Of a DNA stretch of 64,000 nt, positions 120 to 58,720 are shown piece by piece. The notes below the pieces were generated by a model that saw only the letters and a program-made list of their open reading frames with translations, searched no databases and was not told the origin of the DNA. Source of the stretch: Chrysoperla carnea (taxonomy: Eukaryota > Arthropoda > Insecta > Neuroptera > Chrysopidae); NCBI RefSeq assembly GCF_905475395.1, contig NC_058341.1:70625501-70689500 (forward strand), given 5' to 3'. The stretch's first letter is position 1; each line of letters starts with the position of its first letter. Both the position numbers and the translations under genes were made by a program.

Positions 120-684
120 TTTTACCATGTATATATGAAATATACATAGTATATTAAGTTTAGTCCCAAGTTTGTAACGCTTAAAAATAATGATGCTAGG
201 AAAAAAATTTTGTCATAGGTGTTCATAAAATCACCTAATTAGTCCATTTCCGGTTGTCCGTCCTTCCGTCCGTTCGTCCGTCCGTCCGTCTGTGGACACG
301 ATAACTCCAAAACGAAAAAAGATATCGAGCTGAAATTCTTACAGCGTACTCAGGACGTAAAAGTTCGTAAATGAGCATCATAGGTCAATTGGGTCTTGGG
401 TCCGTAGGACCCATCTTGTAAACCGTTAGAGATAGAACAAAAGTTTAAATGTAAAAAATGTTTCTTATCAAAAATTAAACAACTTTTGTTTGAAATATTT
501 TTTCGTAAACATCACTGTTTACCCGTGAGGGCGCAAATTAGGCGGAAATTTTATAATATGTACTATATTTGATTACCAGTTATGTATGTGTCACATGTTT
601 GTATGTGTAATGTGATAAAGAAATCAACAGAGACTATACATGGTATTTCAACAATTAACTCAGTCAATTGTTTGCTTTCACTTG
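120..684 (+). mobile_element. HINE-like element, copy 1
   Basis: Runs from ACCATGTATATATG to TTTCACTTG with all family landmarks: GTCC microsatellite, GGACCCATCTTGTAAACC, CATCACTGTTTACCCGTGAG, and the subterminal TATACATGGTATT before the 3' stem-loop AACAATT...AATTGTT. It interrupts a CAGGGTG-type foldback (1-119 and 685-765). Confidence 0.85.
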
Positions 685-770
685 TTTTTAAGTTATTTTT
701 TGATTGGTTAACTACAAAACGAGATAATTAGGTATTAGACTAAAGTGGCCCATTCTGTATATTTCATATA
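685..770. mobile_element. CAGGGTG-type foldback element, outer end after HINE insertion
   Basis: TTGATTGGTTAACTACAAAA followed by a degenerate terminus (GGCCCATTCTGTAT). Continuation of the element at 1-119. Confidence 0.65.
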
Positions 771-1494
771 CAGTGCTTTTTTAACTTGATATTTGGAAAA
801 AATGTTTGAAAGAAATTTGAAAACACACAATTTTATTTTTCAGACCAAAGTTCTCTCTTTTCTACAAAATAATGTAGGGTTCAATTTAAAAAGATGAAGT
901 TGACCATTCCTAAACCTAGAATCTATCCATCTAAAAATAAACATGCAATTGGAAATTATCAGGGCTTTCAAATGATCAAACTTTTGTTTGGAACAATTTT
1001 TAGTACTTTTTTTAAGTATTTTTGAAAATGTCAAATATAAGAAATAGCATAATTTACAAATAATAGCTAGCAGAGTAAAATTTTTTTATTAGGTATACAG
1101 GAAATAAAATCGATAAGAACGACACTTAATATATAGAAAAAAAATTGATGAGACACGTCTAAACTTTTTTTACGTCAGAAATTTAAAGAGGCCAGTTTAT
1201 TGACTATTTTTGTATAAAAAAAAAGCGTTGAATACGGTGGTGATAAAAAAAATTCTTGGGCTTTATTGTTAGAAATTATGATGTTTTTTGACTTTTCCAA
1301 AACTTTAGATTTTAACAAAATACGTCGTTTGGGTAATTTTATCTTTGACCGTTAAATTGTTATAAACAAAGGGTCAAAAATTAACAATTTCTTTCTGATT
1401 TTTTTTTTTTTTTTTTTGCTCAACGACCTTTTGTTGAGCAAAATATTTTATTTCGGTCAAAATATTATGTTTTGTTCATAGAATACACAGTCTT
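771..1494. other. No gene or element recognised
   Basis: AT-rich sequence with homopolymer runs. It contains a short hairpin TGCTCAACGAC...GTTGAGCA at about 1418-1441. The open frames are short and lack any family signature. Confidence 0.4.
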
Positions 1495-2010
1495 TATACC
1501 ATGTATATATAAAATATACATAGTATATTAAGTTTAGTCCCAAGTTTGTAACGCTTAAAAATATTGATGCTACCAACAAAATTTTGGTATAGGTGTTCAT
1601 TGAATCATCTAATTAGTTCATTTACGGTTGTCCTTCTGTCAACTCGATAACTCGAAAATGAAAAAGATATCAAGCTGAAATTTTTACAGCTCACTCAGGA
1701 CGAAAAAAGTGAGATCGAGTTCGTAAATGAGCAACATGGGTCAATTGGGTCTTGATATATCGGGTTAAAATAGAATAAAAGTTTAAATGTAAAATGTTCC
1801 TTATAAAAAAATAAACAACTTTTGAAAACATCACTGTTTACCCGTGAGAGCGCAAATTATACGCAAATTGTATAGGTACTATTTATTATAGGAGAATGTC
1901 AGTTATATATGTGTGACATGTTTGTATGTGTAATGTGTAATGTGAGTAATCAACACTGTCTATACATGGTATTTCAACAATTAACTCAGTCAATTGTTTG
2001 TTTTCACTTG
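1495..2010 (+). mobile_element. HINE-like element, copy 2
   Basis: TATACCATGTATATAT to TTTTCACTTG, flanked by T's. The GTCC repeat is reduced to a few units. Otherwise full length. Confidence 0.85.
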
Positions 2011-2110
2011 TTTTATATAAAATTAGTCAATAAACTAGTCTCTTTAAATTTCGAAGGGAAATGGCTTATTTTAACTTCAAAACACAACCAGCCCCTAAAA
2101 AAGTGCTAGA

Positions 2111-8315: not shown

Positions 8316-9139
8316 CCTGGTGGAAAAAATATTTGAAGAAAGAATAAGAAATTCTGAAAAAGTCTTAGGAACTTTGAATTTCTCAACGTTTTCGGACTAG
8401 TCTAATTCAGAGTTATTCAGAGTTCTTAATACTTTTTTAAAGTTTCTAAGACTTTTTCAGAGTTTCCTAAGACTTATTAAGACTTATTCTTTTTATACCA
8501 TGCATATATGAAATATACATAGTATATTAAGTTTAGTCCCAAGTTTGTAACGCTTAAAAATAATGATGCTAGGAAAAAAATTTTGTCATAGCTGTTCATA
8601 AAATCACCTAATTAGTCCATTTCCGGCTGTCCGTCCGTCCGTCCGTCCGTCTGTGGACACGATAACTCAAAAACGAAAAAAGATATCGAGCTGATATATG
8701 AAACGAAAAAAGATTACAGCGTACTCAGGACGTAAAAAGTGAGGTCAAGTTCGTAAATGAGCATCATAGGCCAATTGGGTCTTGGGTCCGTAGGACCCAT
8801 CTTGTAAACCGTTAGAGATAGAACAAAAGTTTAAATGTAAAAAATGTTTCTTATAAAAAAATAAAAAACTTTTGTTTGAAACATTTTTTTGTAAACATCA
8901 CTGTTTACTCACGAGGGCGTTAATTAGGTGCAAATTTTATCGTATGTATTAATATAGGTATATATCTTTTGTTATTTACGTGACGTCATAAAAACAAACG
9001 ATTGCGCATCAACACTGTCTATACATTTTTGTATGTGCTATGTGATAAAGAAATCAACACTGACTATGCATGGTATTTCAACAATTAACTCAGTCAATTG
9101 TTTCTTTTCACTTGTTTCAAATATTTTTTCCACCAGGGT
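8316..9139. mobile_element. Palindromic CCCTGGTGGAAAAA element, split by HINE copy 3
   Basis: First part 8316-8493 and remainder 9115-9139 (ATTTTTTCCACCAGGG). Joined, they equal the complete copies elsewhere. Confidence 0.85.
8494..9114 (+). mobile_element. HINE-like element, copy 3 (inside a palindromic element)
   Basis: TATACCATGCATATATG to TTTTCACTTG. It carries the longer 3' region with TGACGTCA at 8981-8988. It interrupts a CCCTGGTGGAAAAA palindrome whose remaining end resumes at 9115 (TTTCAAATATTTTTTCCACC), so a TTT duplication or insertion between T's is visible. Confidence 0.9.
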
Positions 9140-9453
9140 AAAGCAGCATATATAAGTTAATTGTGGCGACTGTAACGTCTCAGATGACATTTTTCATTTA
9201 TGTCATGGAACTCCAACCGAAAGTTTTACCGTACAACATGCGCCGTCGATCGACTTTCAAATGTTTTTAGTTTTTATCAACTGTGCTAAATTGTTGAAAA
9301 ATTAAAAAATAATTATTAATTAAAATCAATGGCTTAAAACAATCCAAATAATTCAAATATCAATCGAAACATCGAACCATTGGTTAATCAATTTAACAAT
9401 ATTTTGAGGAATAATCATAATCAGTAGAACTTTATTGTAAAATTAAAATATAA
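9140..9453. other. Unassigned spacer between inverted HINE copies
   Basis: Contains GTAACGTCTCAGATGACATT and a CGCCGTCGATCGAC segment. No open frame or repeat match recognised. Confidence 0.35.
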
Positions 9454-10105
9454 CAAGTGAAAACAAACAATTGACTGAGTTAATTGTTGAAATACCATGT
9501 ATAGGCAGTGTTGATAACTCTGTCACATTTCACATACATACATATCTGACATATTTAACTGATATTCTCATATAATGCGCAAGTGTTGATGCGCAATAGT
9601 TTGTTTTTTTTGACGTCACGTAAATAACAAAAGATATTCACTTTGATATTCCTATATTAATACATACTATAAAATTTGTACCTAATTAACGCCCTCGTGG
9701 GTAAACAGTGATGTTCACAAAAAAATGTTTCAAACAAAAGTTGTTTATTTTTTTGTAAGGAACATTTTTTACATTTAAACTTTTATTCTATCTCTAACGG
9801 TTTACAAGATGGGTACTACGGACCCATGACCCAATTGACCCATGTTGCTCATTTACGAACTTGACCTCACTTTTTACGTCCTAAGCACGCTGTAAAAATT
9901 TCAGCTTGATATCTCTTTTCGTTTTTGAGTAATCGTGACCACAGACGGACGGGCGGACGGACGGACGGACAACCGGAAATGGATTAATTAGGTGATTTTA
10001 TGAACACCTATACCAATTTTTTTTTTGTAGCATCAATATTTTTAGGCGTTACAAACTTGGGACTAAACTTATAATACTATGTATATTTCATATATACATG
10101 GTATA
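9454..10105 (-). mobile_element. HINE-like element, copy 4
   Basis: Reverse orientation, CAAGTGAAAAC to CATGGTATA, flanked by A's. It carries the long 3' region with TGACGTCA (9612-9619) and several GGAC microsatellite units. It faces copy 3 as an inverted pair 340 bp apart. Confidence 0.9.
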
Positions 10106-10121
10106 AAAATCAAGCCTAACA

Positions 10122-12059: not shown

Positions 12060-15000
12060 ATGGAAAATCAAACACAAAATCAAATAGTGTTAAATAAAAA
12101 TACTGAATCACCTTTAGAACAAAATGAACAAACTGTAATCGGCGACACAACACAAGTAACTGATTTGCCTGAACAATTTTCCGATACAGTGACAGTCACA
12201 AATGAGAAAAATGTAAAAAATACAATTATTCAAAATATAAATGAAGATGGTGATAAAAAAATTGAAATAATCAGTGATGAAATTGTAGCGGAAAATTCAG
12301 AATTATATGAATCACTACAAAATAAATTTAAAACTTTTAAAACTGATTTTATGTCAATGATTGATGCCTTACAAACCGAAGATAAACAAATTACCGATAG
12401 TACTATGGATAAAACGAGTTTGAGTATGTTAGCGGATTACGGTACTAGTTCAACTGATGAGAGTAGCACAGATTCGGATTCGGATAGTGATGCAACTGAT
12501 AGTTCAGAAAGTTCCACAGACGATAGTTGTCCAGTGATTTCTAATACAAATGATAATGGGAATTTTCGATCAGCTATATATCCAGATGATTCAGATTCAT
12601 CATCATCATCATCTAGTTCATCCGATGATGAAGCGAGCTATAATTCTGATTCTTCAGATAATGAAAGGTATCTAAATATGAATTCTTTTTAAATTAAGGT
12701 ATTTGCATATTCTTCATATGTTTGAGTATCATAGTCGCATTAATGAATGTTTTTACTCGGAAGTCCTCAATAAAAGCTCCGATTTTGATGATTTTTTTTT
12801 TCTTCAAAATGATTCTGTTTGTATATTATTTAAAATCAGGAACATTTCAGTGAGAGGAAATAATTTGGAGTGAAATAAGGGATGAAAGTTTGAATGGAGT
12901 TATATACAAAGAGTCATTTTTGAGTTCACCACTTAACCGATTTTAAAAATTCTTTCATCTATAGACAAGTGGCATGCCCTTATTTTCTTTTCCAAATAAT
13001 TAGGGATTCGCACTAAAATTTAAAATCCATTAAATAGTGAACAAACAGGACGCTAAGAGAATTGAAGGCTATAACGTGGATAACTGCTAGTTATTTATAT
13101 TGTTTAAACAATATTTGTGAAACTTAATTTAAACAAATGAAAACAAACAATTGACTGAGTTAATTGTTAAAATACCATGCAAAGATAGCGTTGATTACTC
13201 TATCACATTACATATACATACATGTCACGCACATATAATTAACGCCGTTACGGATAAACAGTGATATTTACGAAAAAATGATTCAAACAAAAGTTGTTCA
13301 TTTTTTTATAAGGTATATTTTTTACATTTAAAACTTTGTTCTATCTCTAACGGTTTACAAGATGTGTCCTACGGACCCATAGGTCAAGACCCGATTGACC
13401 TATGTTGCTCATTTACGAACTCGACCTCACTTTTTATGCCCTGAATACGCTGTAAAAATTTCAACTTTTTGATCTTTTTTCGTTTTTAAGTTATCGTGTT
13501 GGCAGACAGACAGACAGACAACCGATAATGGACTATTTAAGTGATTTTATGAGCACCTATACCAAAATTTTGTTCATAGCAACAATATTTTTCATAGCAA
13601 CAAACTTGGGACTAAACTTAGTATACCTTTTGCATATTACATATATGCATGGTATAAAAATCACTCTTGCCTGATTTTTTCCACAAAAAAATGTATTTTA
13701 ACTTAATAACAATAAAAATGAATTTTTACTTTTGGTGCGGAGCCCTAACTATTTATACCATGTATATGAAATGTACATAGTATATTAAGTTTAGTCCCAA
13801 GTTTGTAACGCCTAAAAATATTGATGCTACGAAAAATAATTTAGTATAGGTGTTCATAGAATCACCTAATTAGTCCATTTCCGGTTGTCTGTCCGTCTGT
13901 CTATCAACACGATAACTCAAAAACAAAAAGAGATATCAAGATGAAATTTTTATAGCGTACTCAGGTCGTAAAAAGTGAGGTCGGGTTCGTAAATGAGTAA
14001 CATAGGTCAATTGGGTCTTGGGTCAGTAGGACCCATCTTGTTGTAAACCGTTAGGGATATAACAAAAGTTTAAATGTAAAAAATGTTCTTTATAACAAAA
14101 TAAACAAATTTTGTTTGAAACATTTTTTTATAAACATCACTGTTTACCCACGAGGGCGCTAATTAGGTATAAATTTTATAGTATGTATTAAAATGGGATT
14201 ATCAATTATATGTGTGTGGCTATTTAAAAGTGGATATCTTTTTTTATTTACGTGACATCAAAAAACAATCGATTGCGTCATCAACACTGTCTATACATGG
14301 TATTTCAACAATTAACTCAGTCAATTGTTTTTTTTCACTCGTTTTAAAATAAAATACAGCCCATGTTACTTGTTGATATTATAGCAATCTATAGGTGAAA
14401 GAATTGTTAAAATCAGTTAAGTAGTGAACTCAAAAATGTCGGTTTGTATATATTTTCATTCAAACTTTCATACCCTATTTCGAATAAGAATAATGAAAAA
14501 ATATTTTTTAAATGACACCCACAGTATAAACAATATCGTCTCGAAACAGCATAAAATCAACATTGTCTCGAAATTGCAAACTTCTATCATTAGCGATTAA
14601 CATATCAGTTGCGACATTTCCTACCCCCCCCCCTACCCCAGATTATTTCCTCTCACTGAAATGTTTCTGATTTTAAATAATATACAAAAAGAATCATTTT
14701 GAAGAAAAAAAATCATAAAATCGTAGCTGTTATTGAGGACTCCCAAAGAATGGCTATTTTATGTATTCCTTTATCCGACTATCAGAAGTATTTTAACAGT
14801 CTAAAGTTGGTACTGCTAAGAAATGTCGATGGCTGAAACTAATTTATGATACAGTTTTTCATAAAATCTCCATCCTAGTCCAATTTTGCTTGCCCGTTTC
14901 TCTTAGTTATGGAGCGCTCATTGCTAATCAGGTATCGAAAACAAAAAATTGTCCAAAAGCTCGGAATTTAAAAGTACACCTTCGATGTGTATGGGACCGG

Positions 15001-18000: not shown

Positions 18001-21000
18001 GTAAGCCGCAAGGTTGAGTTTTTATCCGATCGCAATCTGCTTGATGGGAAACAATAGGGCGAAATGTCAATTACAGCGGTTTAAAAAACGGCGAAAATTC
18101 CTTATTTGCAAAATTAATTTTCTCAACGAAATTTTTTCAGACAACTAGTGCAAAATGGAATTGTGCAATAACTATTTAACCGAATGTAACGTTCCAAAGC
18201 TAACTTTGTTCTTTAAGGTATCAGCTACAAGATATAGGGGTCAATTTTATCAAAACCAATTATTTGCAAAATGCAAACATAATAAATTTTGAAGTTTTAG
18301 AAAAACATCTAAGGAACAAAAATTTCCATATCTCCAGTATTCTAAAGTGCACCATTTACGAGTTACATCGCTTGCAAGAAAGCAAAATAAAATTTTCAGA
18401 CGAATTTGTTTAATAAATCAAGTCCCTAGGTTTCGGGCGAGTAAAGTCGGCAGGTCCATTATATGAGTATCCCCCTTAAGAGATTAAAACCACTTCTGAC
18501 CTGTAACCAACAACAACACGTACAATCCGTAATTATATTGGCCTATTATACAATTTTAAGTAAATAATGGACCGTTTTTGAAAAAAAATTGTCTGGGTGA
18601 CAATTCTTGTTTATTAACTTCTGACAAACCTTTTGTTATAAATTATTTTTATTATGAAAACTCACTTCATAGTACCTCCTTGTATTCTTTCTCCTTTTTT
18701 TTTTTTGGTTCGATTGTTAAAAATAAAGTTTAATATCTCTTTTAACTGCTATAAATTATCTGGCTGACAATTTTTGTTAATAAATTTGCCAGACTTAATT
18801 TTGAATGCGCAAAAAATTAAGTCAAACCTTCTTTCAGAAAAAAAATTAAGCTGGTGTTTAATCGAAAAAGCATTTTAATAAAAAAACAAAAAATAAAGTG
18901 TTGTAGCTTTACAAGAAAAGCACGGTTTTAACGCGAAGAAATCGTTTTTTCGCAATTTATTTTCTCCGTTTTATGACTCACTTTCCCGTTTTTCTTTGCG
19001 TTTTCACAATTTTATCATGTATCTATGAGATTAATAATTATGCAGAGGTTGTAAAGCAACTCTACAAGAAGAAAATGATTTTTTAAAAATTGTCGTAGGG
19101 TGCTTCGTTACCGACTTCGCACACGGCTTTTTTAAGACACCTATTTTCGCAAATTGTGCGGAAACTTTATTTATTGCAAAAAAATGCCATTAAAATTTGA
19201 GCCCAGAACGAAATTCCTGGGAGTCATAAAAACCGAGAAAACAAATGTCAAAATTTGGACTTTTTCGCGATAAAACCGTGTTTTATCGTATAGTTTCCAT
19301 CGGATTTGACTTCAACTAGTCTTATTTTTTTCGTTTTTACAAGCCCCATTTTTTTTTCTTTTAGTAAAATTATTTTCCCTCCTTTTTTTTTTTGTAAATA
19401 ATCGATTTTTTCATAGTATTTTTTCTTAAAAACTACTATTTTTCTCCTAATTATCGCGTTGAAAATCGCGGTATATTTTCACTTAACTATATCTGGTAGA
19501 GCGTTATACGGTCCTTTTATAGACACCCTGTATAGTAAATTTTCTTAAACGTTCATTTAATTTTTGTAACTTGAGTAATGCGAATTTTATGAAAGAAAAA
19601 ATTACTTTCTAAAATTTATTTGATAATCAAAAAAGGCAAATCTAATAAGTTTAATTTTTAATTTTAGCATCAAAATTATTAGTTCAAACGCGAATGAAAA
19701 GAAGAAGTCACCAATACAACGTAAAAATAAAAAAACTGAATTAGATCTGAATGATTTACCACCGATTGAAAATTTACAAATATCTGTACCAGAATCTGTT
19801 TGTGTTGAACTAGGAAGTGTTGTCAGTATTGTTGAGGAACAGGGTAAGTTTTAAAAGATTATCTTCAAGGAACTGTGAAAATAAAAGAGGTGATTTTCAA
19901 TTTGATTGTATATTATTATTAGTATTTAATCGATAGGTGGTAGCTAAAACAACTTCAATCAATCTTTTTTAATATTTTTAGACCAAAAATAGTAATAACC
20001 TTTCAATCAATAAGCCTTCTATCCTGAACTTCCGTCAGGTGTTTGTTTTCCTCTTTTAGAGGATATCTTTAAGTTGTGCCTTTTGGCAAAGGCCTCCTTT
20101 AAACATTTTCCATTCTGCTCTATCTCTGGCAACCCTCCTCAAAAAAAAAAAAAAAATAATAATAATAATAATAATAACAAAAAGTATATTTTGATGAAAA
20201 CGAAAGTTTATCAGGCCTTCCTTTTTATTTTTTATTCAGCACAAAAACTGATGAATTTACCACGGGAACTAAAATTAATGGTTGCCACTTTTTTACTTTA
20301 TTTAAGTACTGGTAACAAGCTCAAGAAGTTCTAGCAGTTTCAGTTTAGGGAGGTCGCCTAAAAAATCATATTGTTCACTAGAATTACAACCTTTTGGTCT
20401 TGATCATCCTATTTTATTTCTTAAATTAAAAGCCTAATCAGAAATAAGTTTTAATTTTGATAAATATTTTTCAGTTGTAATAGCAGCGTTACCAAATATG
20501 CCTCCATTGGATATCGATACGGTATTATTTTTAAATAAAGGTGAAGAAACATTGGGTTTGATCTTTGATGTATTTGGTCCTGTGAATAATCCTATGTATA
20601 CAGTACGATTCAACAACAAAGAAGACATTTTAAATAAAAATGTTAAAGTTGGTATTCAAGTGTATTGTGCTCCAACCACTGAACATACTTCCTATGTTCT
20701 AGTTTCAGATTTAATGAAGTAGGTAAATGCATGTATAAACTACCTTTTCTTTCTATTCTATTCTATTCTAACTATTTTCATTCACTTTCTAATTAGTCCG
20801 GTATCCCAAGCACATATAACTCAAATTTTGTACGACAAAATAGGAAAAAATTATTTTATGCTAAATTTCCTCAGGAATTTGAGAAAAATAGTTTTACTTC
20901 AATCGGCTTTATATTTCAGTAACCTTATCGTCTGAAATTATGGGCCAGTCTGCATCAAATCCGGTAGTTCTGATCTTTCGCAGACGTGTTTATGAAGTTA

Positions 21001-28213: not shown

Positions 28214-28407
28214 CCCTGGTGGAAAAAATATTTGAAAAAAGAATAAGTCTTAGGAAACTCTGAAAAAGTCTTAGAAACTTTAAAAAAGTGTTAAGAACTC
28301 TGAATAACTCTGAATTAGACTATTCCGAAAACGTTGAGAAATTCAAAGTTCCTAAGACTTTTTCAGAATTTCTTATTCTTTTTTCAAATATTTTTTTCCA
28401 CCAGGGA
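28214..28407. mobile_element. Palindromic CCCTGGTGGAAAAA element, complete copy
   Basis: Starts CCCTGGTGGAAAAAATATTT and ends with its inverted equivalent AATATTTTTTTCCACCAGGG. About 194 bp, self-complementary almost throughout. Confidence 0.9.
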
Positions 28408-30130: not shown

Positions 30131-31796
30131 TTTTTTTTATTAATGTCTTCAAGTCACGTTCTCGATAATTATTTATTCAATAAATCTTATGTGTTTGATT
30201 CATAATTTGGCTGGTTTATCAACTTATTTCATATTGCAATAATTCCCTAAACAACCGTTTCATCCGTTTTTTTTATCGCCAGAAATCGTGAATTTTGTCA
30301 AAAATAAAAACCAATTTATAGGTCTGAAAACGCTCTACAAGTTTGATACCAGACATTTTTTTGATATCTTTCCCGGGAAAAAAGAATATAGCAAATGTCA
30401 CTAAACAAAAATTCTGTTTTTTTCGATCGATATCTCAACAACGATGGACGATAGGTCAAAAATGAAAAGGACCTTAATTGTAGATCGTGAGAAAAGTAGC
30501 AAAAAAGTATGGCATAAAAATTCCTCAAAGGAGAACCGAGTTATTATGAAAAAACTGAATTTAACTCTTTTTTCAAGATGGCGGAAATTCACAAAAAAAT
30601 TTCGGTTGACAATTCGAAGTTAAGTTTTCCAAGCCCCCTCTCCACGTAATATCAAAAATTTAGCTTGTTAAGTTCACATGCTTATCGACCCCGTTTTTTC
30701 CGACGTAATGACTGGATTTTGGAATTTTTTGGCTTATTTCACTCTGCTAAAAGGATTTATTGAAAAAAAAAAACACACAATTAAATTAATAATAATAATA
30801 GCTGCTGTGTTAATTATTTATTTATGACACAAAATATATCACAACCAAATTAAAAAAATAATTATAATTACACGAACTGGGAATCTCTGATATTTAAGTA
30901 TCTAATAGCACCTAGAAACAAAAGTATAAAAAATTAAAAGATATATTTAAATGTTGACTATATTACTTTGAACATGGAAGTAAACAGAAGAAGTACCTTG
31001 TATGCATGATTGGTCAAAATAATGTATTAGATCGGGAGCCCACCCTCACTCGCGTCTAAAAGCCAAATTATGTCGCGGAATGTGAAATTTGAAATCTTTT
31101 ATAGATATACGGCCATGGTGGATCCATTGGACAGTTTATACAGCTTTCGCTTCTGAACGGACTCGTTTTTTATCCAAAAGGAGTAAGCAACTACACGTTA
31201 AGGCGAACATTTTCGGAATCGTCGTGAAAAGTGAAAACCCATACATCTTCTACCGGCATCGAATTCGTTCAAGTCAAATTAAAACCTTACTCTGATTCAT
31301 AACTGACAAACATTGGATGTACGCCTTAAATTAGAAAGTTGTTCTTTATAAATACTCAAACATATTTTGTTTGAAACATTTAGCTTGTTAAGTTCACATG
31401 CTTATCGACCCCGTTTTTTCCCGACGTAATGACTGAATTATGAAATTTTTTTGTTTGTAAATCGATTAGTTTAGACAGTAATTGGTAGAAAAAATCTAGC
31501 TTTTTGTGCGTTTGTTCCCTCCTCCTGCTATTCGGAATATCTCTACACATATTTGGACTAAAATATAATGTATTCATTTCAAAAGTATCCACCCTTAATA
31601 ACTCGTATTAAGGGAGATTATTATTATTGTTTTGATTGAAAACAAATCGATTTAAATATCGAGGGGAAAAGTTCAAAAATGGTACCTAGAGAATTTTAGG
31701 TTCCTGTATAATTAGTTAGTGCAAGAAATAATTTTAAATTATTTTGAGTAGCAATGTAACATTGAACGCGTAACAACTTCAAAAATAGTAATTTTA
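30131..31796. other. Gene-free region with a 65-bp direct repeat
   Basis: The block TAGCTTGTTAAGTTCACATG...GACGTAATGACTG occurs at 30661-30713 and again at 31381-31434 in the same orientation. The open frames here show no family signature. Confidence 0.4.
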
Positions 31797-32520
31797 GAAA
31801 TCAATTGACTGAATTAATTGTTGAAATACCATGTATAGAAAGTTTTGATTACACTGTCACATTAACATACATAAATGTCACAGATATACATATATATAAC
31901 TGATATACCCATATAATACTATACAATTTGCGCTCTCACGGGTAAACAGTTACGTTTACGAAAATATGTCTCAAACAAAAGTTGTTTATTTTTTATAAGG
32001 AATATTTTTTACATTTAAACTTTTAAATTTCGATTTTTGCCCCAATTCCTAGATCAGTTTTTTGTATTTTTAAAAATACGTATTTTCGACTACCAAGTAG
32101 TCATCATCAGTAAGAATTAGCTAGTGAATGTTACTCTTTGCTAATTTTGGTGGCGGACTGCTCTATCTTCGATAATATTTATATTTAAACTTTTGTTCTA
32201 TCTCTAACGGTTTACAAGATGGGTCTTACGGACCCAAGACCCAATTGACCTATATTGCTCATTTACGAACTTGACCTCACTTTTTACGCCCTCAGTACGC
32301 TATAAAAATTTCAGATAAATATCTCTTTTCGTTTTTGAGTAATCGTGATAACAGACGGACAGACACACGACAGACGACAGGCAGACAACCAGAAATGGAC
32401 TAATTAGGTGATTTTATGAACACTTATACCAACATTTTTTTTAATAGCATCTTTTTTTTTATGGTTACAAACTTGGGACTAAACTTATTATACCTTTGTA
32501 TATTTCATATACATGGTATA
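31797..32520 (-). mobile_element. HINE-like element, copy 7, split by a retroposed fragment
   Basis: From CAATTGACTGAATTAATTG to ACATGGTATA. A 158-bp foreign segment (32025-32182) with a 12-bp duplication interrupts it. Confidence 0.85.
32025..32182 (-). mobile_element. Short retroposed fragment with 12-bp target duplication
   Basis: ATTTAAACTTTT occurs at 32013-32024 and again at 32183-32194, flanking 158 bp foreign to the host HINE. The insert contains GTAGTCATCATCAG and a TTTTAAAAATACGTATTTT stretch. I read it as a LINE 3' end or SINE-like piece; strand is a guess. Confidence 0.6.
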
Positions 32521-32671
32521 GAAATTTAGTTATCTACAATAAAGGTTATTACCATTTTTAACTCTTCTGCCCTCTAAATTTGTAAGGATTTTGTGCATAA
32601 TAACTAACTCCTGTTATTGAATGCAAAAAAATTATGTATTATCTGTATAGTACAGTAACTTTATACATTAC

Positions 32672-44358: not shown

Positions 44359-44819
44359 CGTACGTCTAGTACCTAAATATAAAAAGATCAACAATTAGTA
44401 TTTATATCTTTTTAAGTTTATGTAAATATTTTAAAACTTACGAAAGTTCTTTAAAAATTATTGCCATTATTTTTGAATTGTAGTTAAACGTGGAAATTAA
44501 AATTTTTTATTGACATTTATTAGACAGATTTATATGTCAAACTGAGATATCAACAATTTCATTATTTTAAATTTGTAGATAGCTTCACATGAATTGAGGT
44601 CAAGTCATAATTTCATAAGGGTACAGGAAAAAACACAGAATATCACAATATTTGTAAAAACATCCGTCAATAGGTAAGTCCTTTTTGCCTAAAGGTGTAT
44701 TTTCACGCTGACGGTAGACGCTGTGTTTAAGCGTCAAATTAGATCAAGTGATCAGTTTAGGTGGTGCTGTTATCTGGGAAAAAACTAAGCCGCGTCTAAT
44801 TATTTTACATTTAACTTTT

Positions 44820-45400
44820 TATACCATGCATATATGTAATATGCAAGGTATACTAAGTTTAGTCCCAAGTTTGTAACGCTTAAAAATATCAATGCTAAGC
44901 AAAAAATTTTGGTATAAGTGTTCATAAAATCACCTAATTAATCCATTACCGGTTGTCTGTCTGTCTGTCGTTTGTCGCCTGTCCGTATGCCATCACGATT
45001 ACTCAAAAACGAAAAGAGATATCAAGCTGAAATTTTTATAGCGTACTGAGGACGTAAAAAGTGAGGTCAAGTTCGTAAATGAGCAATATAGGGCAATTGG
45101 GTCTTGGGTCCGTAGGTCCGTAGGACACATTTTGTAAACCGTTAGAGATGGAACAATAGTTTAAATATAAAAAATATTCCTTATAAAAAAAATAACCAAC
45201 TTTTGTTTGAAACATTTTTTCGTAAATATCACTGTTTACCCGTGAGGGGTGCAAATTAGGCGTAAATTATATAGTATGTAATTATGAGAATATCAGTTAT
45301 GTATGTGTGACATGTATGTATGTGTAATGTGATAGAGTCATCAACACTGTCTATGCATGGTATTTAAACAATTGACTCAGTCAATTTTTGTTTTCACTTG
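44820..45400 (+). mobile_element. HINE-like element, copy 9
   Basis: TATACCATGCATATATG to TTTTCACTTG, flanked by T runs on both sides. Full length. The microsatellite is TGTC-based. Confidence 0.9.
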
Positions 45401-45454
45401 TTTTTTATTTGCGCTTCACGAATTATTTTTTGACCATGGCAAACCGATAATTGA

Positions 45455-46495: not shown

Positions 46496-46664
46496 GTAGA
46501 ACTAGACAAATATGAGTATCAACTGTTCCAAAAAATTCTTTGGAAATGGCAAAAAATTGAAAATAAAATTTTTTTAAATTAACCCTTCTCGTTTAATAAA
46601 ACATTAAAAAATATATATTATAAATTTATTTATCTAATACTCTCAAAATTAATAATGATAATAA

Positions 46665-47221
46665 CAAGTGAAAACAAACAATTGACTGAGTTAATTGTTG
46701 AAATACCATGCATAGTCAGTGTTGATTTCTTTATCACATTACACATACAAACATGTGACACGTACATAACTGATAATCAAGTATAGTACATTTTATAAAA
46801 TTTCCACCTAATTGGCGCCCTCACGGGTAAACAGTGATGTTTACGAAAAAATGTTTCAAACAAAAGTTGTTTAATTTTTTATAAGGAACATTTTTTTATA
46901 TTTAAACTTTTGTTCTATCTCTAACGGTTTACAAGATGGGTCCTACGGACCCAAGACCCAATGGACCTATGATGCTCATTTACGAACTTGATCTCACTTT
47001 TTGCGTCCTGAGTACGCTGTAAAAAGCTCGATATCTTTTTTCGTTTTTGAGTTATCGTGTCCACAGACGGACGGACGGACGGTCGGACGGACAACCGAAA
47101 ATGGACTAATTAGATGATTTTACCTATGACAAAATGTTTTTCCTAGCATCATTATTTTTAAGCGTTACAAACTTGGGACTAAACTTAATATACTATGTAT
47201 ATTTCATATATACATGGTATA
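46665..47221 (-). mobile_element. HINE-like element, copy 10
   Basis: CAAGTGAAAAC to ACATGGTATA, A-flanked, with clean GGAC microsatellite units. Short 3' form. By eye it is very close in sequence to copies 1 and 12. Confidence 0.9.
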
Positions 47222-47894
47222 AAAATAGGATATAGGTACTTTTCTATGATAAAAAGTCAGTTTAGGCCTATCACATAAAAACAGTCATATCACATATTAT
47301 AATTTATTTTTAATTAAAAACTATAATCTGTGATCTATTATATTGATAACTGGGAGCTGCAACTCGCCAACTGGCGATAATAATTCGTACTAATTAAAAC
47401 AAGAAGTGGGTCCGAATTAGTAGTTCCAATTTAGACTACCAGATAGCAATACTAGTACATACCATTTTTTAAGGCCAATCAAAATATTCAAATCAGTTAA
47501 TATTTAAAACAGGAAGTGGATCGCTTTTCAGTAGTTCTAATTTAGACCACCAGGTTACTTACCAATTATAATTTACCATTTAGAAAATGTTTTAGTTTCA
47601 TTATTAAACACTAGACTTCGCCACATATTTCAAATCCAAATAGCAATATTAATCGAAAATTTAAAATAAATAAACAAGTTTTAGTTTTGTATTGAGTAAA
47701 TATATTTTATTACGATTTAACAAAAAAAAAACAAATTTAGTACAAAGTTTTTACATATGAAACGAACAATTTTTCAAAATTAAATGATTACATTTTAATT
47801 TATTATTTAATAACTAACAAGAAAAACTGAACTGATTTTTAACTTAAAAAAAAGTTATTTACATACATTATCAAAATAAAACTGAAATATATTT
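47222..47894. other. Gene-free AT-rich sequence
   Basis: A loose direct repeat around AACAGGAAGTGGATCGC / AACAAGAAGTGGGTCCG (about 47399 and 47510). Nothing else recognised. Confidence 0.35.
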
Positions 47895-49276: not shown

Positions 49277-52200
49277 CTATTTAAAATGAATACGTTTATG
49301 TTTATCTAAAGATGTTTGCTGCGTAAATCTTTTATTACAAATATCACATAAAAATGGTTTTTCTCCTGTGTGAATACGTTTATGTTTCACCAAACTACAT
49401 TGCTGAGTAAATCTTTTACTACAAACATCACATGAAAATGGTTTTTCCCCGCTATGAATTAATTTATGTGTAATTAAATAATGTCGATAAGTAAATGTTT
49501 TATCACAAATATCACATGAAAATGGTTTTTCTCCGCTATGAATCTGTTTATGTCTACCTAAAGTTCTTTGATTAGTAAATGATTTATTACAAACATCACA
49601 TGAAAATGGTTTTTCTCCACTGTGAATACGTTTATGTACAACTAAATTATGCTGATTAGCAAATCTTTTATTACAAATATCGCAAGAAAATGGTTTTTCC
49701 CCGGTGTGAATACGATTATGGTTAACTAAATTATGTTGATAAGCAAATGTTTTATTACAAAAATCACATGAAAATGATTTTTCTTCACTGTGAATACGTT
49801 TATGTTGAACTAAATTATGTTGATAAGTAAATGTTTTATTACAAATATCACATGCAAATGAATTTTCTCCACTATGAATCTTTTTATGCTTAACTAAATT
49901 ACTTTTCTCGGTAAAGGTTTTCTTACAAATATCACATGAAAATGGTTTCTCTCCACTATGAATCCGTTTGTGCGCAACTAAATTACCTTGCTGACTAAAT
50001 GTTTTATTACAAATATCACATAAAAATTGTTTTTGTCCACTATGAATCTGTTTATGTTTAACTAAAGAACTTTTCTCAGTAAATGTTTTTTTACAAATAT
50101 CACATGAAAACGGTTTTTCTCCACTGTGAATCCGTTTATGCTGAACTAAAGAACTTTGCTGAGTAAATGTTTTATTACAAACATCACATAAAAATGGTTT
50201 TTCTCCAGTGTGAATACGTTTATGTGTATTTAAATTACTTTTATAGTTAAATCTTTTATTACAAACATCACATGAAAATGATTGGTTTGTACTTGGAGTA
50301 TGAATTTCTTGTGATTCCAAAATAGATTTTTCATTTAATATTTCATCTTTAATAATCAGTTCTGTATGTAATTCTTGTTCAGGTTTAATATTTTCGTAGT
50401 TAATTGTACACAATTGTTGATCATTTTCACAAACACTCACAACACTATTAATATCATTGCTGTCTTCTTCTGGTGTTTCATTTTTAATTCGTTCAACTTC
50501 CATTACAACATTTTCATCGAATATTTCACTTTTAATCATCACTTCTTCATAATTAATCATACTTGTGTACAAATCTTGATCATTTTCATAAATTGGTTCT
50601 TGTTTTACATTTTTAATGCTGTTGTTAAGTATTTCTTCCTTCATTAAATCATTGCTGCCGTCTAATGTTTCCATATTAATCATTATTTCTGTAAAATTCG
50701 TATTTTTTGAAGTAGTTGCAGTGTTAGCTGTATTGAAAAACCGGGGCACAACTCCTTCTTTTAAAATTTTTCGAGCATTAGGCACCGTCGTTACATAAAA
50801 ATAGTTTTCCAAATCTTCCTTTAACTGTAATAAAAACATACAAATAATATATTAACAAGTGAAAACAAACAATTGACTGAGTTAATTGTTGAAATACCAT
50901 GCATAGTCAGTGTTGATTTCTTTATCACATTACACATACAAACATGTGACACATACATAACTGATAATCGAGTATAGTACATGTTATAAAATTTTCGCCT
51001 AATTTGCGCCCTCACGGGTAAACAGTGATGTTTACGAAAAAATGTTTCAAACAAAAGTTGTTTAATTTCTGATAAGGAACATTTTTTACATTTAAACTTT
51101 TGTTCTATCTCTAACGGTTTACAATATGGGTCCTACGGACCCAAGACCCAACATTTTTTACAACATTAATTATTGTTTGAGCATATAATTATATTTTAAA
51201 TAGTATGTATATCCTGTATATATGAAGTATATAGCAAGGTAAAAAAAAATATAGCAAGCAGAAGTTTTTATAGCCCGCTCACGACCTACAGAGTGAGTTT
51301 GCGTTCGTAAAGTTCAATTGAGTATTTTTAAACCGTTAGAGATAGAACAAAAGTTAAAATATAAAAAAATATTTCTTATAAAAAAATAAACAACTTTTGT
51401 TTGAAACATTTTTTCATAAACACCACTGTTTACCTGCGAAGGAGCAAATTAAGACAAAACTTTGGTTTTCATTTTCCACATAACTATAAAAGATAGAGTT
51501 GAAAATTTGCAGGTAGAATCAACTAATAGTTTTGTAAAACACTCTCGAAAAACTTTTCGAAATTTTCATAATTTTTGAAAGTATCTTCTAGGCGCTTTCA
51601 CAGGTAAACAATGATGTTTACAAAAAAATATTTCAAACAGTTGTGTATTTTTTTATAGGAAACATTTTTTACCCTGACATTTTTGCTCTGTCTCTAACGG
51701 CTTACAAGATAGGTCCTTTTTCATTTGATTGAATGAAAACAAAATTTTTAGGGTATTTTCTAGGCCCGTTCACGGGTAAACGGTGATGTTTATGTGTATT
51801 TTCTTTTGTTGGGGATGGAAGTATTCCAATAACGTGTTCATTCCAATAACAATGAATCAATTACCAGCTCCAGATAATCTTTATAATTAAAATAAGGGAA
51901 GTAGAAGAAAATTTATGATTTAAAAAAATTATAAAGTATTTAAATATAAACAAGTATTATTTTTCCCGATTCCTATCTGTATGTTTAGCTATTCGCTGTG
52001 TGCGTAGTCATGGTAGGGACAATAAAATCGATGCCAGCGCTTCCAGTGAAAAATTTTGGCGTTAAAGGGGGCTGTTATGACTAATTTGCAGTTCTTTAGA
52101 AATGTCAAATTAAAATTATTGTAAACACTAATTAATTAAACTTAATGCATTAAAAATTGTGAAAATAAGAAATCAAATTGCACAAATATTATTTTTCAAA

Positions 52201-53092
52201 TGTAAATTAACATAATTATTTATTTAAATTTGTGAGACAATAATATTAAATTTTCAATGTGAGTCTTAAATGCAATCCATACAATTATATATGCATCTAC
52301 ACAATTCTATAATTAAAGTAGTGTATCGTTACCATGGAAACGAAACTCACGCACAGAGCGAATAACATGTATTCGAATATTTGAATTATTGAAATTATTA
52401 ATTTGCAAATGATATTTACAATATTTATCAAAAAAAAAAACCGACAAATGTTTGGGGTACGAAACCCTAATCTCGTACTTGAAACATAACCAAGAACACT
52501 CCATTAAATTACATTTTTCCTTATAGCTCTCTCCCAATTGAACCGACTTTGACGATCATCGCCTGTTTTTTAGTTATTCAGGTACGGAATCCTAAATCGC
52601 ACTTGAAACATAGCTAAGAACGCTCTCTGTTAAATTACCTTCGAAGCAAATAAAAAAAACTTAAAATCGGTTCATCCGTTTAGGAGCTACGATGCCATAG
52701 GTTTAAATTCGGGGGTTAAAAATCGAGAGCACAATTTTTTAAGAGGTAAACTTTTTCATTTATATTACCAGCTAAACATTCCATATATTTTTTTAATTTT
52801 TCATTCACTGTCTCGGATTTCCGAGCTTTTTATGTTTTTACTACTCTAGGAACTGCACTATATATATGTATACACTTACATCAAAATGGTCTTCGCAACA
52901 ATAAGATTCAGTTTCAAGACGTTTATCAGGGCAATTAGCAGCAATACACCATTGTTTTCTCACTTCATCATTTTTGGGAACAGAAATAAAATGTTTTTCC
53001 GGAGTAGTATAAGTAGTGTTGCGACACGAAGGTACAAAACAATATTTGTTACTTTTGTGATTTGGTGAAGTATCAATATTGCTAAAATCCAT
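49277..53092 (-). CDS. THAP-domain protein with twelve C2H2 zinc fingers (2 exons, 586 aa)
   Basis: Exons are 53092-52880 (71 codons) and 50824-49277 (515 codons plus TAG), with donor GTAAGT, acceptor TTACAG and phase 0. The ATG at 53092 is the first in frame after an upstream TGA. Residues 1-101 form a THAP zinc domain: C18, C23, C66 and H69 as the C2CH ligands, W48, and a closing VVPRFF at 96-101, which matches the family's AVPTIF box and confirms the exon join. An acidic linker (about 105-250) has five PsiKxE SUMO-type motifs (VKQE 144, IKSE 168, IKNE 184, IKPE 217, IKDE 229) and an internal duplication around ENDQ-L-T-INYE. Twelve C2H2 fingers of 28 residues run from about residue 256 to the end, mostly joined by T/SGEKP linkers; the linkers after fingers 3, 5 and 6 are degenerate. 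Likely a nuclear sequence-specific DNA-binding regulator; target unknown. The single 2.06 kb intron contains HINE pieces. Confidence 0.9.
50856..51152 (-). mobile_element. HINE-like element, copy 11, 5'-truncated, in THAP gene intron
   Basis: Starts CAAGTGAAAAC and ends after GGACCCAAGACCCAA, so only the 3' half is present. It lies 31 bp from the exon 2 acceptor of the THAP zinc-finger gene. Further degenerate family pieces follow at about 51266-51453 (+) and 51588-51720 (-). Confidence 0.8.
51153..52443. other. THAP gene intron: degenerate HINE pieces and unassigned sequence
   Basis: CACTGTTTACC-type blocks at about 51266-51453 (+), 51588-51720 (-) and 51765-51800 (-) are HINE debris. The rest, 51800-52443, is AT-rich with no match. 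Confidence 0.45.
52444..52706 (+). repeat. Dispersed repeat with internal duplication, copy 1
   Basis: Two ~115-bp units each carrying ACTTGAAACATA and AAGAAC, followed by AAAATCGGTTCATCCGTTTA and GAGCTACGATGCCA. A second copy in the same orientation lies at 62263-62519. Confidence 0.7.
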
Positions 53093-54341
53093 TTGTCCGC
53101 ACTTATTTGTTAATTTTTTCTTTACCAAAAATTTTTTTATGTTAATTAATTTACTTCAAAACAAATATAACCTTAACCCTGATGGAACCATAAAATATAA
53201 TCATTTCTATTGGTCGAAACTACCAAAAACAAGGCTGCCTTAATATTATATTATGAGTGAGTAAGATAAATAGATATTGTGTTGACCCAAAAAAGACATA
53301 TACTAGTAATATCAATGCGATCAATACACAGACTATGGAGTGTAGAGTAAACTTTACTCTACACTCCATAACACAGACATTATAACCAAATATACCAACC
53401 TAATAAAAAAATTAAAGGAATAGGGAATATTCATGAAATTTAAATTTGGTTCCAATATTTTTCTTCCGAAACTTTAATTACTGGACATTTCAACTTAACC
53501 ATTATTTTAGTAATTAATATCTTTTTAACTACTTAAAATTAATTAATAAAAGTACAAATTCAGTGAGGGCATTTAAAAGTTTCTAAACAGGAAATTCAAA
53601 TTTTTATACGGGCGTGACATCATAGTAAGTAACAATGTAATAAGCTATTTTATAGGAAATGAAAATCTAATTCAGCTATAACTTTTCGGATATGGAACTT
53701 TTTGTAATTATCTCAGAAGAATACTAATTTTGCAGATCAAAGAATGACATAAATTTACATAATGATATCAATGAACCTGCGCTTATCATTTAAAAATTGG
53801 CATATTGACAACGTGCGCATGCGCAATAAAAGGAGAAAAAATTGAATTGAATTGATGAAAAAATTTAATTATTAGTTAATGTGAAAAATTTATGATCCAA
53901 AAATTGCGAATATTGAACGAACAATCATTGATTTGTTAAAATACATTGATTATGGAAGTAAAAAGAAGAAATAAATAGTATGGGGGGCTAACTTAATGAC
54001 AAATATTGTTTAATAAATAATAAATAAACAACGCTCGAACAAATTTTAATGGTCAAGCAATGAAAAACAAACAACGAACAATGGATTAAAATAGATTTAC
54101 AATTAATTAACCCGAAAAAAATTTTGTGTGGGGCCAAATTACATTAGCTTAATTAACAATCATAATTACGGCGATGCCATCCGTAAATCTATATAATATT
54201 CTATGTGTATAAAGTGACCTATAAAAAGGTTCCAATTAAAGTCAGTAGATATAGAATCATCATTAGACGAAGAACTTATATACGATATAAGAAAATAAAA
54301 ATTCAAAAATAAAAAAATTCTGGCGGGAAAAAGTTGATGAA
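53093..54341. other. Intergenic region between two - strand genes
   Basis: Should hold the THAP gene's promoter and the HMG-like gene's 3' UTR. A perfect palindrome lies at 53334-53370. No TATA box could be assigned with confidence. Confidence 0.4.
53334..53370. repeat. Perfect 18-bp-arm palindrome
   Basis: TATGGAGTGTAGAGTAAA, a single C, then its exact complement. It lies 240 bp upstream of the THAP gene's ATG. Confidence 0.9.
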
Positions 54342-56321: not shown

Positions 56322-56750
56322 TAAACGAAAATTTTATAAAATAAAAACTATTCTATAAAATAAACTTTTGTATTTGTTAGTCATATTTTCCAAAAAGGTT
56401 TTTAAATAGAAAGCAATTTTTATGTATAAATATAAAATTGATTTTATTTGATCATATATCCATGGAAATGACGAATAAATACATCCAAATATATACTGAC
56501 AGGAAAATGAAGTTGGTTTTTGAAAATGTTTACAAGTACGTAAAATATGAACGTATAAAATTACTAATTAAACAAAGAGGAAGATATAGGTTAGTGACGT
56601 AATTTACCGATATATTTCCATAGAGATTAGATATAAAACTTTGTTTGCTAAAAAGGAGATGGGCAACAATCTTTGAATGCTTATAGCTTTTTCGTTTTTA
56701 AGAGCGTATTATGAGCGCCAGGGCAATTTTGGATAAAAGGCTTGATTTTT

Positions 56751-57299
56751 TATACCATGCATATATGAAAAATACATAGTATATTAAGTTTAGTCTCAAG
56801 TTTGTAACGCTTAAAAATAATGAAGCTACGAAAAAAATTTTGCCATAGGTGTTCATAAAATCACCTAATTAGTCCCATTCCGGCTGTCCGTCCGTCCGTC
56901 TGTGGACACGATAACTCAAAAACGAAAAAATATATCGAGCTGAAATTTTTACAGCGTACTCAGGACGTAAAAAGTGAGGTCAAGTTCGTAAATGAGCATC
57001 ATAGGTCAATTGGGTCTTGGGTCCGTAGGACCCATCTTGTAAACCGTTAGAGATAGAACAAAAGTTTAAATGTTCCTTATCAAAACTTAAACAACTTTTG
57101 TTTGCAACATTTTTTCGTAAACATCACTGTTTACCCGTGAGGGCGCCAATTAGGCGGAAATTTTATAATAATATGTACTATACTTGATTATCAGTTATGT
57201 ATGTGTCCCATGTTTGTATGTGCAATGTGATAAAGAAATCAACACTAACTATGCATGGTATTTCAACAATTAACTCAGTCAATTGATTGTTTTCACTTG
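56751..57299 (+). mobile_element. HINE-like element, copy 12
   Basis: TATACCATGCATATATG to TTTTCACTTG, T-flanked. Short 3' form. It lies between the divergent HMG-like gene and the partial gene at 58981. Confidence 0.9.
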
Positions 57300-58458
57300 T
57301 TTAATAATGAAATTGAACTAAGTCTAAATCAATTCTGAAAATTTTAGGAAAGGTTACCCGATTATTTAAATAAATAAATGATTTCTAAAACTAATTACAA
57401 TTAAAACCTTAATAACTTGTTGAAAAAAAAAATCGCTCAAGAATTTTGGAAAATTACTAAAGTCGGCGAAAATATTATACATTTTTTTTCGTTACGGCAC
57501 TATTTTTTGCACTAAATTAACTTCTAACTTAATTTCTAAGTATAGAGTAATCTATAAGACCTTTCGAGTGTCACCTGAACTTAAATATTATCAAACTATT
57601 AATTTTTTTCTTGAAGTTGGCTTAATAAAAATAGAAATAAGACTAAAGAAAATTTAAAATAAGTACATTTTTAAAAATTACCATAATCGGCGAAAATCAA
57701 TTTTTGAAAAAAATTTATTTAGAGTTACAACCTAATTGCTTATACAAACGGAAATTAAAAAAAAAAAAAACATCAATTTTCGTCGATTTTAGTATTTTTC
57801 AAAAATTTTGAGCTACTTTTTTTTATGAGATTAGATATGCGCATAACATGTATTTTTGTTATAAAATACCAATTATGCGCCTAGAGCCATCTATCAGTTA
57901 ATACAACAAATCAATGCATATCTAGTAGGATGGCCCAAAAAAAAAACGAATATTTTTTCTTCTATGAAAATATGTTAGTTTATCATATTTTAAGACCCCC
58001 CTCCAAAGGACAGCTCAAAAAAAAATTTTTAAAAGGTCACTCCGAATTTTTTAAAAATTCCAAAAACGTTGAAAACCGGATTGTTTTTGTTTTAAATTTT
58101 TTTTTCTCATTATTTTCTTTTTTTCTAAGAGAAAAATTATGAAGATCCCGAAAATTTCAAGTTGAAATTTTAATATTGAAAGGTCGCTCTGAATTTTTCT
58201 AAGGTTCCAAGTCGAGCACTTTATATTTTTTCGAAGCTACTTTTGAACATGAATATTAACGAACTTTTATTTTATTTTTTTTAATATTTCATACTAAAGG
58301 ATGAAATTGAAACACGAGAAATTTAATGAAAAAAAATTTAAAGAACATTTTTCACTATTGTAATGCAATTGTCAAAAAATCATAATTTTTTGACAATTTT
58401 CAAACGATGGGCTATTGATAAAAAAAAAATTAATATTCAAAAATTAAAAAGAAAAAAT
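57300..58458. other. Gene-free region with a weak foldback
   Basis: ATTACTAAAGTCGGCGAAAA (about 57465) is loosely inverted at about 57775-57800 (TTTTCGTCGATTTTAGTA). The frame at 57930-58142 is lysine/phenylalanine-rich and not supported as a gene. Confidence 0.4.
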
Positions 58459-58720
58459 TGAGTGAAAACAAACAATTGACTGAGTTAATTGTTGAAATAC
58501 CATGTATAGACAGTGTTGATGAAGCAATCGTTTGTTTTTTGACGTCACGTTAATAAAAAAAGATATCCACTTTTAAATAGCTACACACACACTGATATTC
58601 CCATATTAATGCATACTATAAAATTTGCACCTAATAAGCGCCCTCGTGGGTAAACAGTGAAGTTTAAAAAAAAATGTTTCAAACAAAAGTTTTATGTATA
58701 TTTCATATATACATGGTATA
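58459..58720 (-). mobile_element. HINE-like element, copy 13, internally deleted
   Basis: Both ends are present (GAGTGAAAAC and ACATGGTATA) with TGACGTCA at 58540-58547. About 250-300 bp, including the microsatellite and the GGACCC block, is missing between CAAACAAAAGTT and TATGTATATTTC. It lies 260 bp upstream of the partial gene's ATG. Confidence 0.85.

What the first reader, a model, noticed from the sequence alone, without database searches (positions are those of the whole stretch)
120..58720. A C/T variant covaries between the 5' motif and its subterminal 3' inverted copy
The motif is ATACCATGTATA or ATACCATGCATA. In the eleven copies with both ends readable, the two motifs agree in ten: T/T at 120, 1495, 9454, 13754, 31797 and 58459; C/C at 8494, 13134, 44820 and 56751. 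Only 46665 differs (5' T, 3' C). By hand, the hypergeometric chance of this association is about 0.015. The variant does not follow the long/short 3' subfamily split (8494 is C and 9454 is T, both long). Because the copies are inverted they could pair with each other, so matched changes may reflect a pairing or co-recognition requirement, gene conversion, or two sublineages.
Basis: partly seen in the sequence, partly recalled or inferred. Interest (0 to 1): 0.7.

Follow-up and report, generated by a model that had tools for sequence, protein, structure and literature searches.

The report
Matched ends in insect-type jumping DNA
Short jumping-DNA elements scattered through this stretch carry the same small DNA word near both ends, and a one-letter variant of that word usually appears at both ends together; this fits a known class of rolling-circle transposons with matched ends, and eleven copies are too few to show more than that.

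Summary
In 11 two-ended copies the 12-bp word ATACCATG[T/C]ATA near the 5' end agrees with its inverted copy near the 3' end in 10 of 11 (6 T/T, 4 C/C, 1 T/C; Fisher p = 0.015). The copies are a non-autonomous Helentron-type (HINE/DINE-1-like) family: subterminal inverted repeats (subTIRs), a partial inverted arm beside the 5' one, a GTCY microsatellite, a 3' stem-loop, insertion at T-runs. Matched subTIRs define that class, and published types differ in them as pairs.

One monophyletic C subfamily is not enough: C/C occurs in at least two places on the trees, and close lineage Y holds T/T, T/C and C/C. Tree-based simulation gives a positive association as strong in 0.3-1.5%. The signal is fragile: p = 0.048 after dropping any one T/T copy, 0.083 without the pair X, 1 inside Y. 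The local 5' hairpin does not explain it: both Y C/C copies lose a hairpin pair but keep 5'/3' identity. Copies 8491 and 9448 read as having two successive 3' ends. Best reading: matched subTIRs, inherited as pairs and kept matched by recognition at both ends. The genome-wide test could not be run.

The parts
116..690 (+). HINE-like copy, lineage Y, T/T; 5' motif 122-133 (TTACCATGTATA), local arm 141-152, 3' motif 635-646, 3' stem-loop within 647-672
   Evidence: related repeats without the insertion, at about 75-89% identity, near 42780, 23717 and others
1491..2020 (+). copy, T/T; 5' motif 1496-1507, local arm 1515-1526, 3' motif 1961-1972, stem-loop within 1973-1998
8491..9123 (+). copy with lineage-Y ends, C/C; 5' motif 8495-8506, local arm 8514-8525 (A kept opposite the C), 3' motif 9065-9076; reads as a chimera with a relic T-type 3' end (TATACAT at 9020-9026) inside
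   Evidence: paralogous empty site at 28231-28242
9448..10108 (-). copy, T/T; 5' motif 10093-10104, local arm 10074-10085, 3' motif 9492-9503; relic 3' end of the long type around 9567-9600 inside
13131..13659 (-). copy of pair X, C/C; 5' motif 13644-13655, 3' motif 13172-13183 (ATACCATGCAAA), local arm carries the matching G
   Evidence: paralogous empty site at 35807-35814
13751..14346 (+). copy, T/T, long 3' type; 5' motif 13755-13766, 3' motif 14292-14303
   Evidence: both flanks match one related repeat up to 35710, not aligned across the join
31796..32523 (-). copy, T/T, with an interior insertion and a short 3' tail; 5' motif 32508-32519, 3' motif 31826-31837
44817..45408 (+). copy of pair X, C/C; 5' motif 44821-44832, local arm 44840-44851 with matching G, 3' motif 45352-45363
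46658..47224 (-). copy, lineage Y, 5' T / 3' C, the only mismatch; 5' motif 47209-47220, local arm 47190-47201, 3' motif 46703-46714
50854..51151 (-). 5'-truncated copy, lineage Y, 3' motif only (C) at 50894-50905; left out of the association counts
56748..57306 (+). copy, lineage Y, C/C; 5' motif 56752-56763, local arm 56771-56782 (A kept opposite the C, one further change), 3' motif 57250-57261
58460..58723 (-). internally deleted copy, T/T; 5' motif 58708-58719, 3' motif 58497-58508

Best explanation
The copies are a non-autonomous Helentron-type (HINE/DINE-1-like) rolling-circle transposon family, about 0.5-0.7 kb in the ten two-ended copies that are not internally deleted, whose two 12-bp motifs are the subterminal inverted repeats (subTIRs). 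The C/T variant marks subTIR versions that exist as matched pairs in source copies and are inherited at both ends together. Mismatched copies are rare, most likely because one transposase/helicase supplied by an autonomous relative recognises the same site at both ends, so copies with matched ends are copied more. Shown here: the anatomy, T-run insertion, the 10 of 11 agreement, C/C in at least two places on the trees. Read from the sequence: modular 3' ends in two copies. Inferred: an outside enzyme, recognition of both subTIRs, and selection for matching.
For: Anatomy and T-run insertion at related unoccupied sites match the published DINE-1/HINE description (PMC2374699, PMC4067079). 10 of 11 copies agree. 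The 24 subTIR positions vary at 4 (two are the C/T site, two are private changes), against 46% of 504 other columns. Dependent against independent change: likelihood ratio 8.5, 8.5 and 7.2 on the interior, 3'-half and 5'-half trees; associations as strong and positive in 0.3%, 0.6% and 1.5% of 4000 simulations each (either direction 0.7%, 0.8%, 2.4%). Precedent: D. willistoni DINE-1 types 2 and 3 are listed with subTIRs differing at one base; oyster Cg_HINE elements have element-specific subTIR changes.
Against: Only 11 copies from one window; p rises to 0.048 on dropping any one T/T copy and to 0.083 without X; inside Y p = 1. The independent-pairs test on the trees had too few pairs to decide (2 on well supported branches, same direction in 1.5 of 2 on average, median p 1). 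Fitted change rates of the C/T sites are so high (tens to hundreds per unit branch length) that the trees constrain the test little. One-mismatch subTIRs are tolerated elsewhere: they predominate in most oyster HINEs, and D. mojavensis DINE-1 has one mismatch. No Helitron protein among the 10 of 65 stop-to-stop ORFs scanned.
Confidence: 0.6

Rival explanations
1. Shared ancestry alone: a few sublineages with fixed end pairs, no selection for matching; the rest is chance in 11 copies.
For: 13131 and 44817 share a distinct local arm. p is only 0.083 without them and 1 inside Y. Support inside Y is low.
Against: C is not one clade, and Y holds T/T, T/C and C/C; parsimony needs 3-4 changes at the 5' site and 4 at the 3' site. 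Independent change on the trees gives a positive association as strong in only 0.3-1.5%. Neither subTIR site associates with interior sites at p<=0.015 (69 tried, many too rare to reach it).
Confidence: 0.25
2. Gene conversion or template switching copies one end's motif into the other inverted copy of the same element.
For: Copy 8491 reads as having a junction inside a relic 3' motif followed by a second 3' end, and 9448 as having two successive 3' ends, so end sequence is replaced at times.
Against: By eye, no tract beyond the 12-bp motif is shared between the two ends, though conversion of a short tract would leave no trace. The local arm, nearer to the 5' motif, was not converted in Y C/C copies.
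Confidence: 0.07
3. Base pairing between the two ends (long-range stem in single-stranded DNA) is required, and the changes are compensatory.
For: The single exception, 46658, is the direction that leaves a T-G wobble on the element's + strand; the C-A direction was seen in 0 of 11.
Against: One exception carries no weight. The local 5' hairpin (-6.1 to -9.3 kcal/mol in the five T and X copies folded) would compete. A long-range stem was not itself folded.
Confidence: 0.05
4. Linkage across the end-to-end junction of a circular intermediate keeps the two ends together while interiors recombine.
For: Circles are reported for Helraiser and, from joined-end amplicons, for a Fusarium Helitron2-type element. 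8491 has Y-type ends around a long-type stretch.
Against: Site pairs far apart in line but close on a circle show no extra association: mean r2 0.135 for 77 pairs against 0.151 for 84 other distant pairs.
Confidence: 0.03

Closest known systems
DINE-1 / INE-1 of Drosophila (Yang and Barbash 2008, PMC2374699; sections 6 (part 1) and 7 and passages seen)
   Same: [quoted passage not shown] GTCY microsatellite; stem-loop after the 3' subTIR; insertion in T-rich sites; no ORF. All 14 listed Drosophila subTIRs contain TACC near the start, as this one does; D. willistoni type 1 begins TATACCAT.
   Different: The rest of the subTIR differs. No central repeat array was noticed in the copies (Tandem Repeats Finder, lists only the GTCC run of copy 116 and a few short arrays in or beside copies). 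Homology of the core to DINE-1 was not tested by alignment.
HINE families of mites and Culex (Thomas et al. 2014, PMC4067079; passages seen)
   Same: subTIRs, 3' palindrome, T-rich target without clear target modification, non-autonomous.
   Different: Their subTIRs are themselves palindromic, and the mite families lack the separate 5' inverted arm; this family has the arm, as DINE-1 does.
Cg_HINE elements of the Pacific oyster (PMC7492417; passages seen)
   Same: subTIR, complementary arm, microsatellite, 3' subTIR, palindrome; element-specific subTIR changes.
   Different: They carry satellite arrays; one-mismatch subTIRs predominate in most of them.
Canonical Helitrons such as Helraiser (PMC4778049; passages seen)
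   Same: 3' hairpin; 3'-end bypass giving new ends, comparable to the double 3' ends read in 8491 and 9448.
   Different: No 5'-TC / CTRR-3' ends here and no insertion between A and T.

Membership tests
HINE / DINE-1-like non-autonomous Helentron | 11-15 bp subTIRs near the 5' end and internal at the 3' end | tested here: met
   12-bp inverted pair, 100% complementary in copy 13751; 20 of 22 motifs exact in 11 copies; the 3' motif lies 37-38 bp before the end of the CACTTG-like tail in the 10 of 12 copies that have that tail
HINE / DINE-1-like non-autonomous Helentron | partial inverted arm beside the 5' subTIR (DINE-1 form) | tested here: met
   seen in 10 of the 11 two-ended copies; in deleted copy 58460 only its start remains. 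Of 7 copies folded, 5 form the hairpin at -6.1 to -9.3 kcal/mol; in 8491 and 56748 it is weak and the centroid is unpaired
HINE / DINE-1-like non-autonomous Helentron | GTCY microsatellite in the 5' block | tested here: met
   clean run of 12-24 bases in 9 of 12 copies; none in 50854 and 58460, which lack that part, nor in 1491, where it is decayed
HINE / DINE-1-like non-autonomous Helentron | stem-loop just downstream of the 3' subTIR | tested here: met
   sequence found in 12 of 12 copies with up to 3 errors; 7-bp stem in 3 of 4 folds and a longer one in 44817, but the folding energy of these 3' ends is not unusual against shuffles (z -0.1 to -1.7)
HINE / DINE-1-like non-autonomous Helentron | insertion in TT / T-rich target, no other target duplication | tested here: met
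   joins aligned to related unoccupied sites for 116, 8491 and 13131 (116 only to diverged repeats), flank matches for 13751; three or more T before the 5' motif in 10 of 11 copies. How many T's belong to the element, and a TT duplication, cannot be settled
HINE / DINE-1-like non-autonomous Helentron | no coding capacity | tested here: met
   longest stop-free stretch 38-93 codons per copy, 12 copies
HINE / DINE-1-like non-autonomous Helentron | autonomous partner with Rep/helicase/endonuclease sharing the ends | not testable with these tools
   own-genome search unanswered in 16 tries; no Helitron domain in the 10 of 65 window ORFs (75 codons or more, stop to stop) scanned with Pfam
Canonical Helitron (Helitron1) | 5'-TC and CTRR-3' ends, insertion between A and T | tested here: not met
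   ends are T-run/ATACC and CACTTG/T-run at the unoccupied sites; CACTTGTT in 8 of 12 copies
MITE of a cut-and-paste transposon | terminal inverted repeats and target duplication | tested here: not met
   the 3' repeat lies about 40 bp inside the end and is followed by a stem-loop; a TT target duplication cannot be excluded

The most novel reading that the evidence does not exclude
Within one family of one genome, the two subTIRs of a Helentron-type element change together copy by copy, through mismatched intermediates such as 46658 and with the local hairpin sacrificed. This would show that the transposition machinery needs the two subTIRs to be identical to each other more than it needs the 5' hairpin.
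Probability: 0.2. Interest if true: 0.5.

Novelty: new member of a known kind. Interest (0 to 1): 0.22.

Why it matters
How Helentrons recognise their two ends has not, as far as I recall, been worked out at the bench (I searched only listings). A natural C/T polymorphism at both ends, with a mismatched copy, is a ready-made test in a genome with many copies. As it stands, the finding mainly identifies one more HINE family and gives a small example of matched subTIR evolution inside a single family.

Tried and rejected
Tried without result: exact 20-26 base pieces of the element in viral contigs and genome contigs gave 0 matches each. A literature search for the motif letters and one 21-base piece gave five papers whose listed titles are unrelated. 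Pfam on 10 of the window's 65 stop-to-stop ORFs of 75 codons or more found no Helitron protein.

Considered and rejected or lowered: MITE and canonical Helitron (ends and target); maintenance by the local 5' hairpin (5' motif and local arm agree in 9 of 11, p = 0.11, against 10 of 11, p = 0.015, for the two ends); circle-junction linkage; one monophyletic C subfamily.

Limits: the alignment misplaces the 5' part of deleted copy 58460 and some 5' gaps in 13751 and 31796, so end states were read directly. 50854 was left out of the association counts, and 50854 and 58460 out of the 5'-half tree. Simulations used fixed best trees and kept only draws with 3 or more of the rarer state.
Full report
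WHAT WAS CHECKED. The word ATACCATGYATA occurs 21 times exactly in the window, against a mean of 0.01 in shuffles. With one base off, two more end motifs belong to copies (TTACCATGTATA at 122, ATACCATGCAAA at 13172). A BLAST of four copies against the window gave 34 merged stretches; I took 18 of them for reading, of which 12 have at least one clear end motif and 11 have both. Of those 11, six are T/T, four C/C and one (46658) is 5' T / 3' C. Fisher p is 0.0152.

WHAT THE COPIES ARE. Three or more T's precede the 5' motif in 10 of 11 copies (31796 has TTTCT). After the motif come a short loop and a partial inverted arm (10 of 11), then a conserved block and a GTCY microsatellite (clean run in 9 of 12). 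No copy has a stop-free stretch above 93 codons (12 copies). Near the 3' end comes the inverted motif, then a stem-loop (12 of 12 with up to 3 errors), then a tail with CACTTGTT in 8 of 12 copies. For 116, 8491 and 13131 the joined flanks align with related sequence elsewhere in the window that lacks the insertion, the join lying in or next to a T-run; 8491 and 13131 are clear, 116 is matched only by diverged repeats. Both flanks of 13751 match one related repeat. This is the published plan of DINE-1/HINE elements: subTIRs, a 5' partial inverted repeat, a GTCY microsatellite, a stem-loop after the 3' subTIR and TT insertion (PMC2374699; PMC4067079). I file it as a new family of that kind. The autonomous partner was not seen.

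IS THE COVARIATION MORE THAN ANCESTRY? Trees of the interior without the motifs support lineage Y: 116, 46658, 56748 and 8491 in the 5' half (99/97); 116, 46658, 50854 and 56748 in the 3' half (99/99), with 8491 outside. Y holds T/T, T/C, C/C, C/C and one 3'-only C. The other C/C copies, 13131 and 44817 (X), share a local arm with the matching G, but the trees do not support them as a clade: two of three put 44817 with the T/T copy 31796, and the 3'-half tree pairs X at 79/67. So C is not one clade: the 5' site needs 3-4 changes and the 3' site 4. The independent-pairs test found only 2 usable pairs on well supported branches (same direction in 1.5 on average, opposite in 0) and cannot decide. 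Of left-right pairs of informative interior sites 4 of 1166 are as strong as the motif pair, and the fair figure is 4 of 231 with minor counts of at least 3 on both sides; by r2, 55 of 2342 interior pairs equal or exceed it. Neither motif site reaches p<=0.015 with any of 69 interior sites, many of which are too rare to do so. A model with faster return to matching fits better (likelihood ratio 8.5, 8.5, 7.2; one extra rate), and independent change gives a positive association as strong in 0.3%, 0.6% and 1.5% of 4000 simulations on the interior, 3'-half and 5'-half trees, or 0.7%, 0.8% and 2.4% in either direction. The fitted rates of these two sites are very high, so the trees constrain the test little. 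Removing single copies gives p 0.033-0.048 (0.005 without the exception 46658), removing X 0.083, removing Y 0.048, and inside Y there is no signal. The position was also picked because it looked striking. I call it suggestive.

WHAT THE ANATOMY SAYS ABOUT MECHANISM. If the C/T change were kept in step by the 5' hairpin, the local arm should change too. It does in X (hairpin -9.3 in 44817 and -6.4 kcal/mol in 13131) but not in the two Y C/C copies, where the hairpin falls to -2.7 (8491) and -0.6 (56748, which has a second change in the arm) against -6.1 in the T copies 1491 and 46658 and -6.7 in 31796. In Y, then, the two ends match each other at the cost of the hairpin. That favours recognition of the same site at both ends, or inheritance of matched pairs, over a hairpin requirement. 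Two copies are little evidence. Long-range pairing and gene conversion remain possible but have no specific support.

MODULAR 3' ENDS. Copy 8491 reads as carrying a long-type 3' end up to CTATACAT (TATACAT at 9020-9026) and then a second, Y-type 3' end; copy 9448 reads as a long-type 3' end up to ATCAACACT and then a second, short-type one (by reading and segment identities, no formal breakpoint test). Linkage of the ends across a circle junction was tested and found no support (mean r2 0.135 for 77 pairs against 0.151 for 84).

COMPARISON AND NOVELTY. Matched subTIRs that differ between types are known. D. willistoni DINE-1 types 2 and 3 are listed with subTIRs differing at one base, and D. 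mojavensis with one mismatch between its two ends; oyster HINEs show element-specific subTIR changes while one-mismatch pairs predominate in most elements. What is added here is a small within-family case. I saw no paper that tests copy-level covariation of subTIRs in the listings of searches or in the passages of the papers opened. The genome-wide test is decisive and could not be run: sixteen identical requests were unanswered.

Noticed in passing
8491-9123 and 9448-10108: Both copies read as carrying two successive 3' ends, as if replication ran past one 3' end and stopped at the next, or two elements recombined; the junction in 8491 lies inside a relic 3' motif.
   Followed up: partly
50854-51151: A 5'-truncated copy lies about 15 bp upstream of the listed ATG of a C2H2 zinc-finger ORF (49277-50839, minus strand); a splice-acceptor-like TTTTTATTACAG follows that ATG, so the copy is probably in an intron (inference).
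   Followed up: partly
13131-13659 and 13751-14346: Two copies in opposite orientation lie 91 bp apart in one other repeat, whose relatives lie at about 35576-36230.
   Followed up: partly
8316-8490 and 9117-9138: Copy 8491 sits inside another repeat with inverted ends (CCTGGTGGAAAAAATA); related stretches at about 4451 and 28215.
   Followed up: partly
20438-20719: Exon-like ORF with a Gar1/Naf1 RNA-binding domain (Pfam E 8.6e-17); 26219-26947 may be the same gene's C-terminal part (my guess; no Pfam match).
   Followed up: no
52844-53155: THAP-domain ORF (Pfam E 2.9e-9).
   Followed up: no
37506-38018: Tandem array of a 146-bp unit, 3.6 copies.
   Followed up: no
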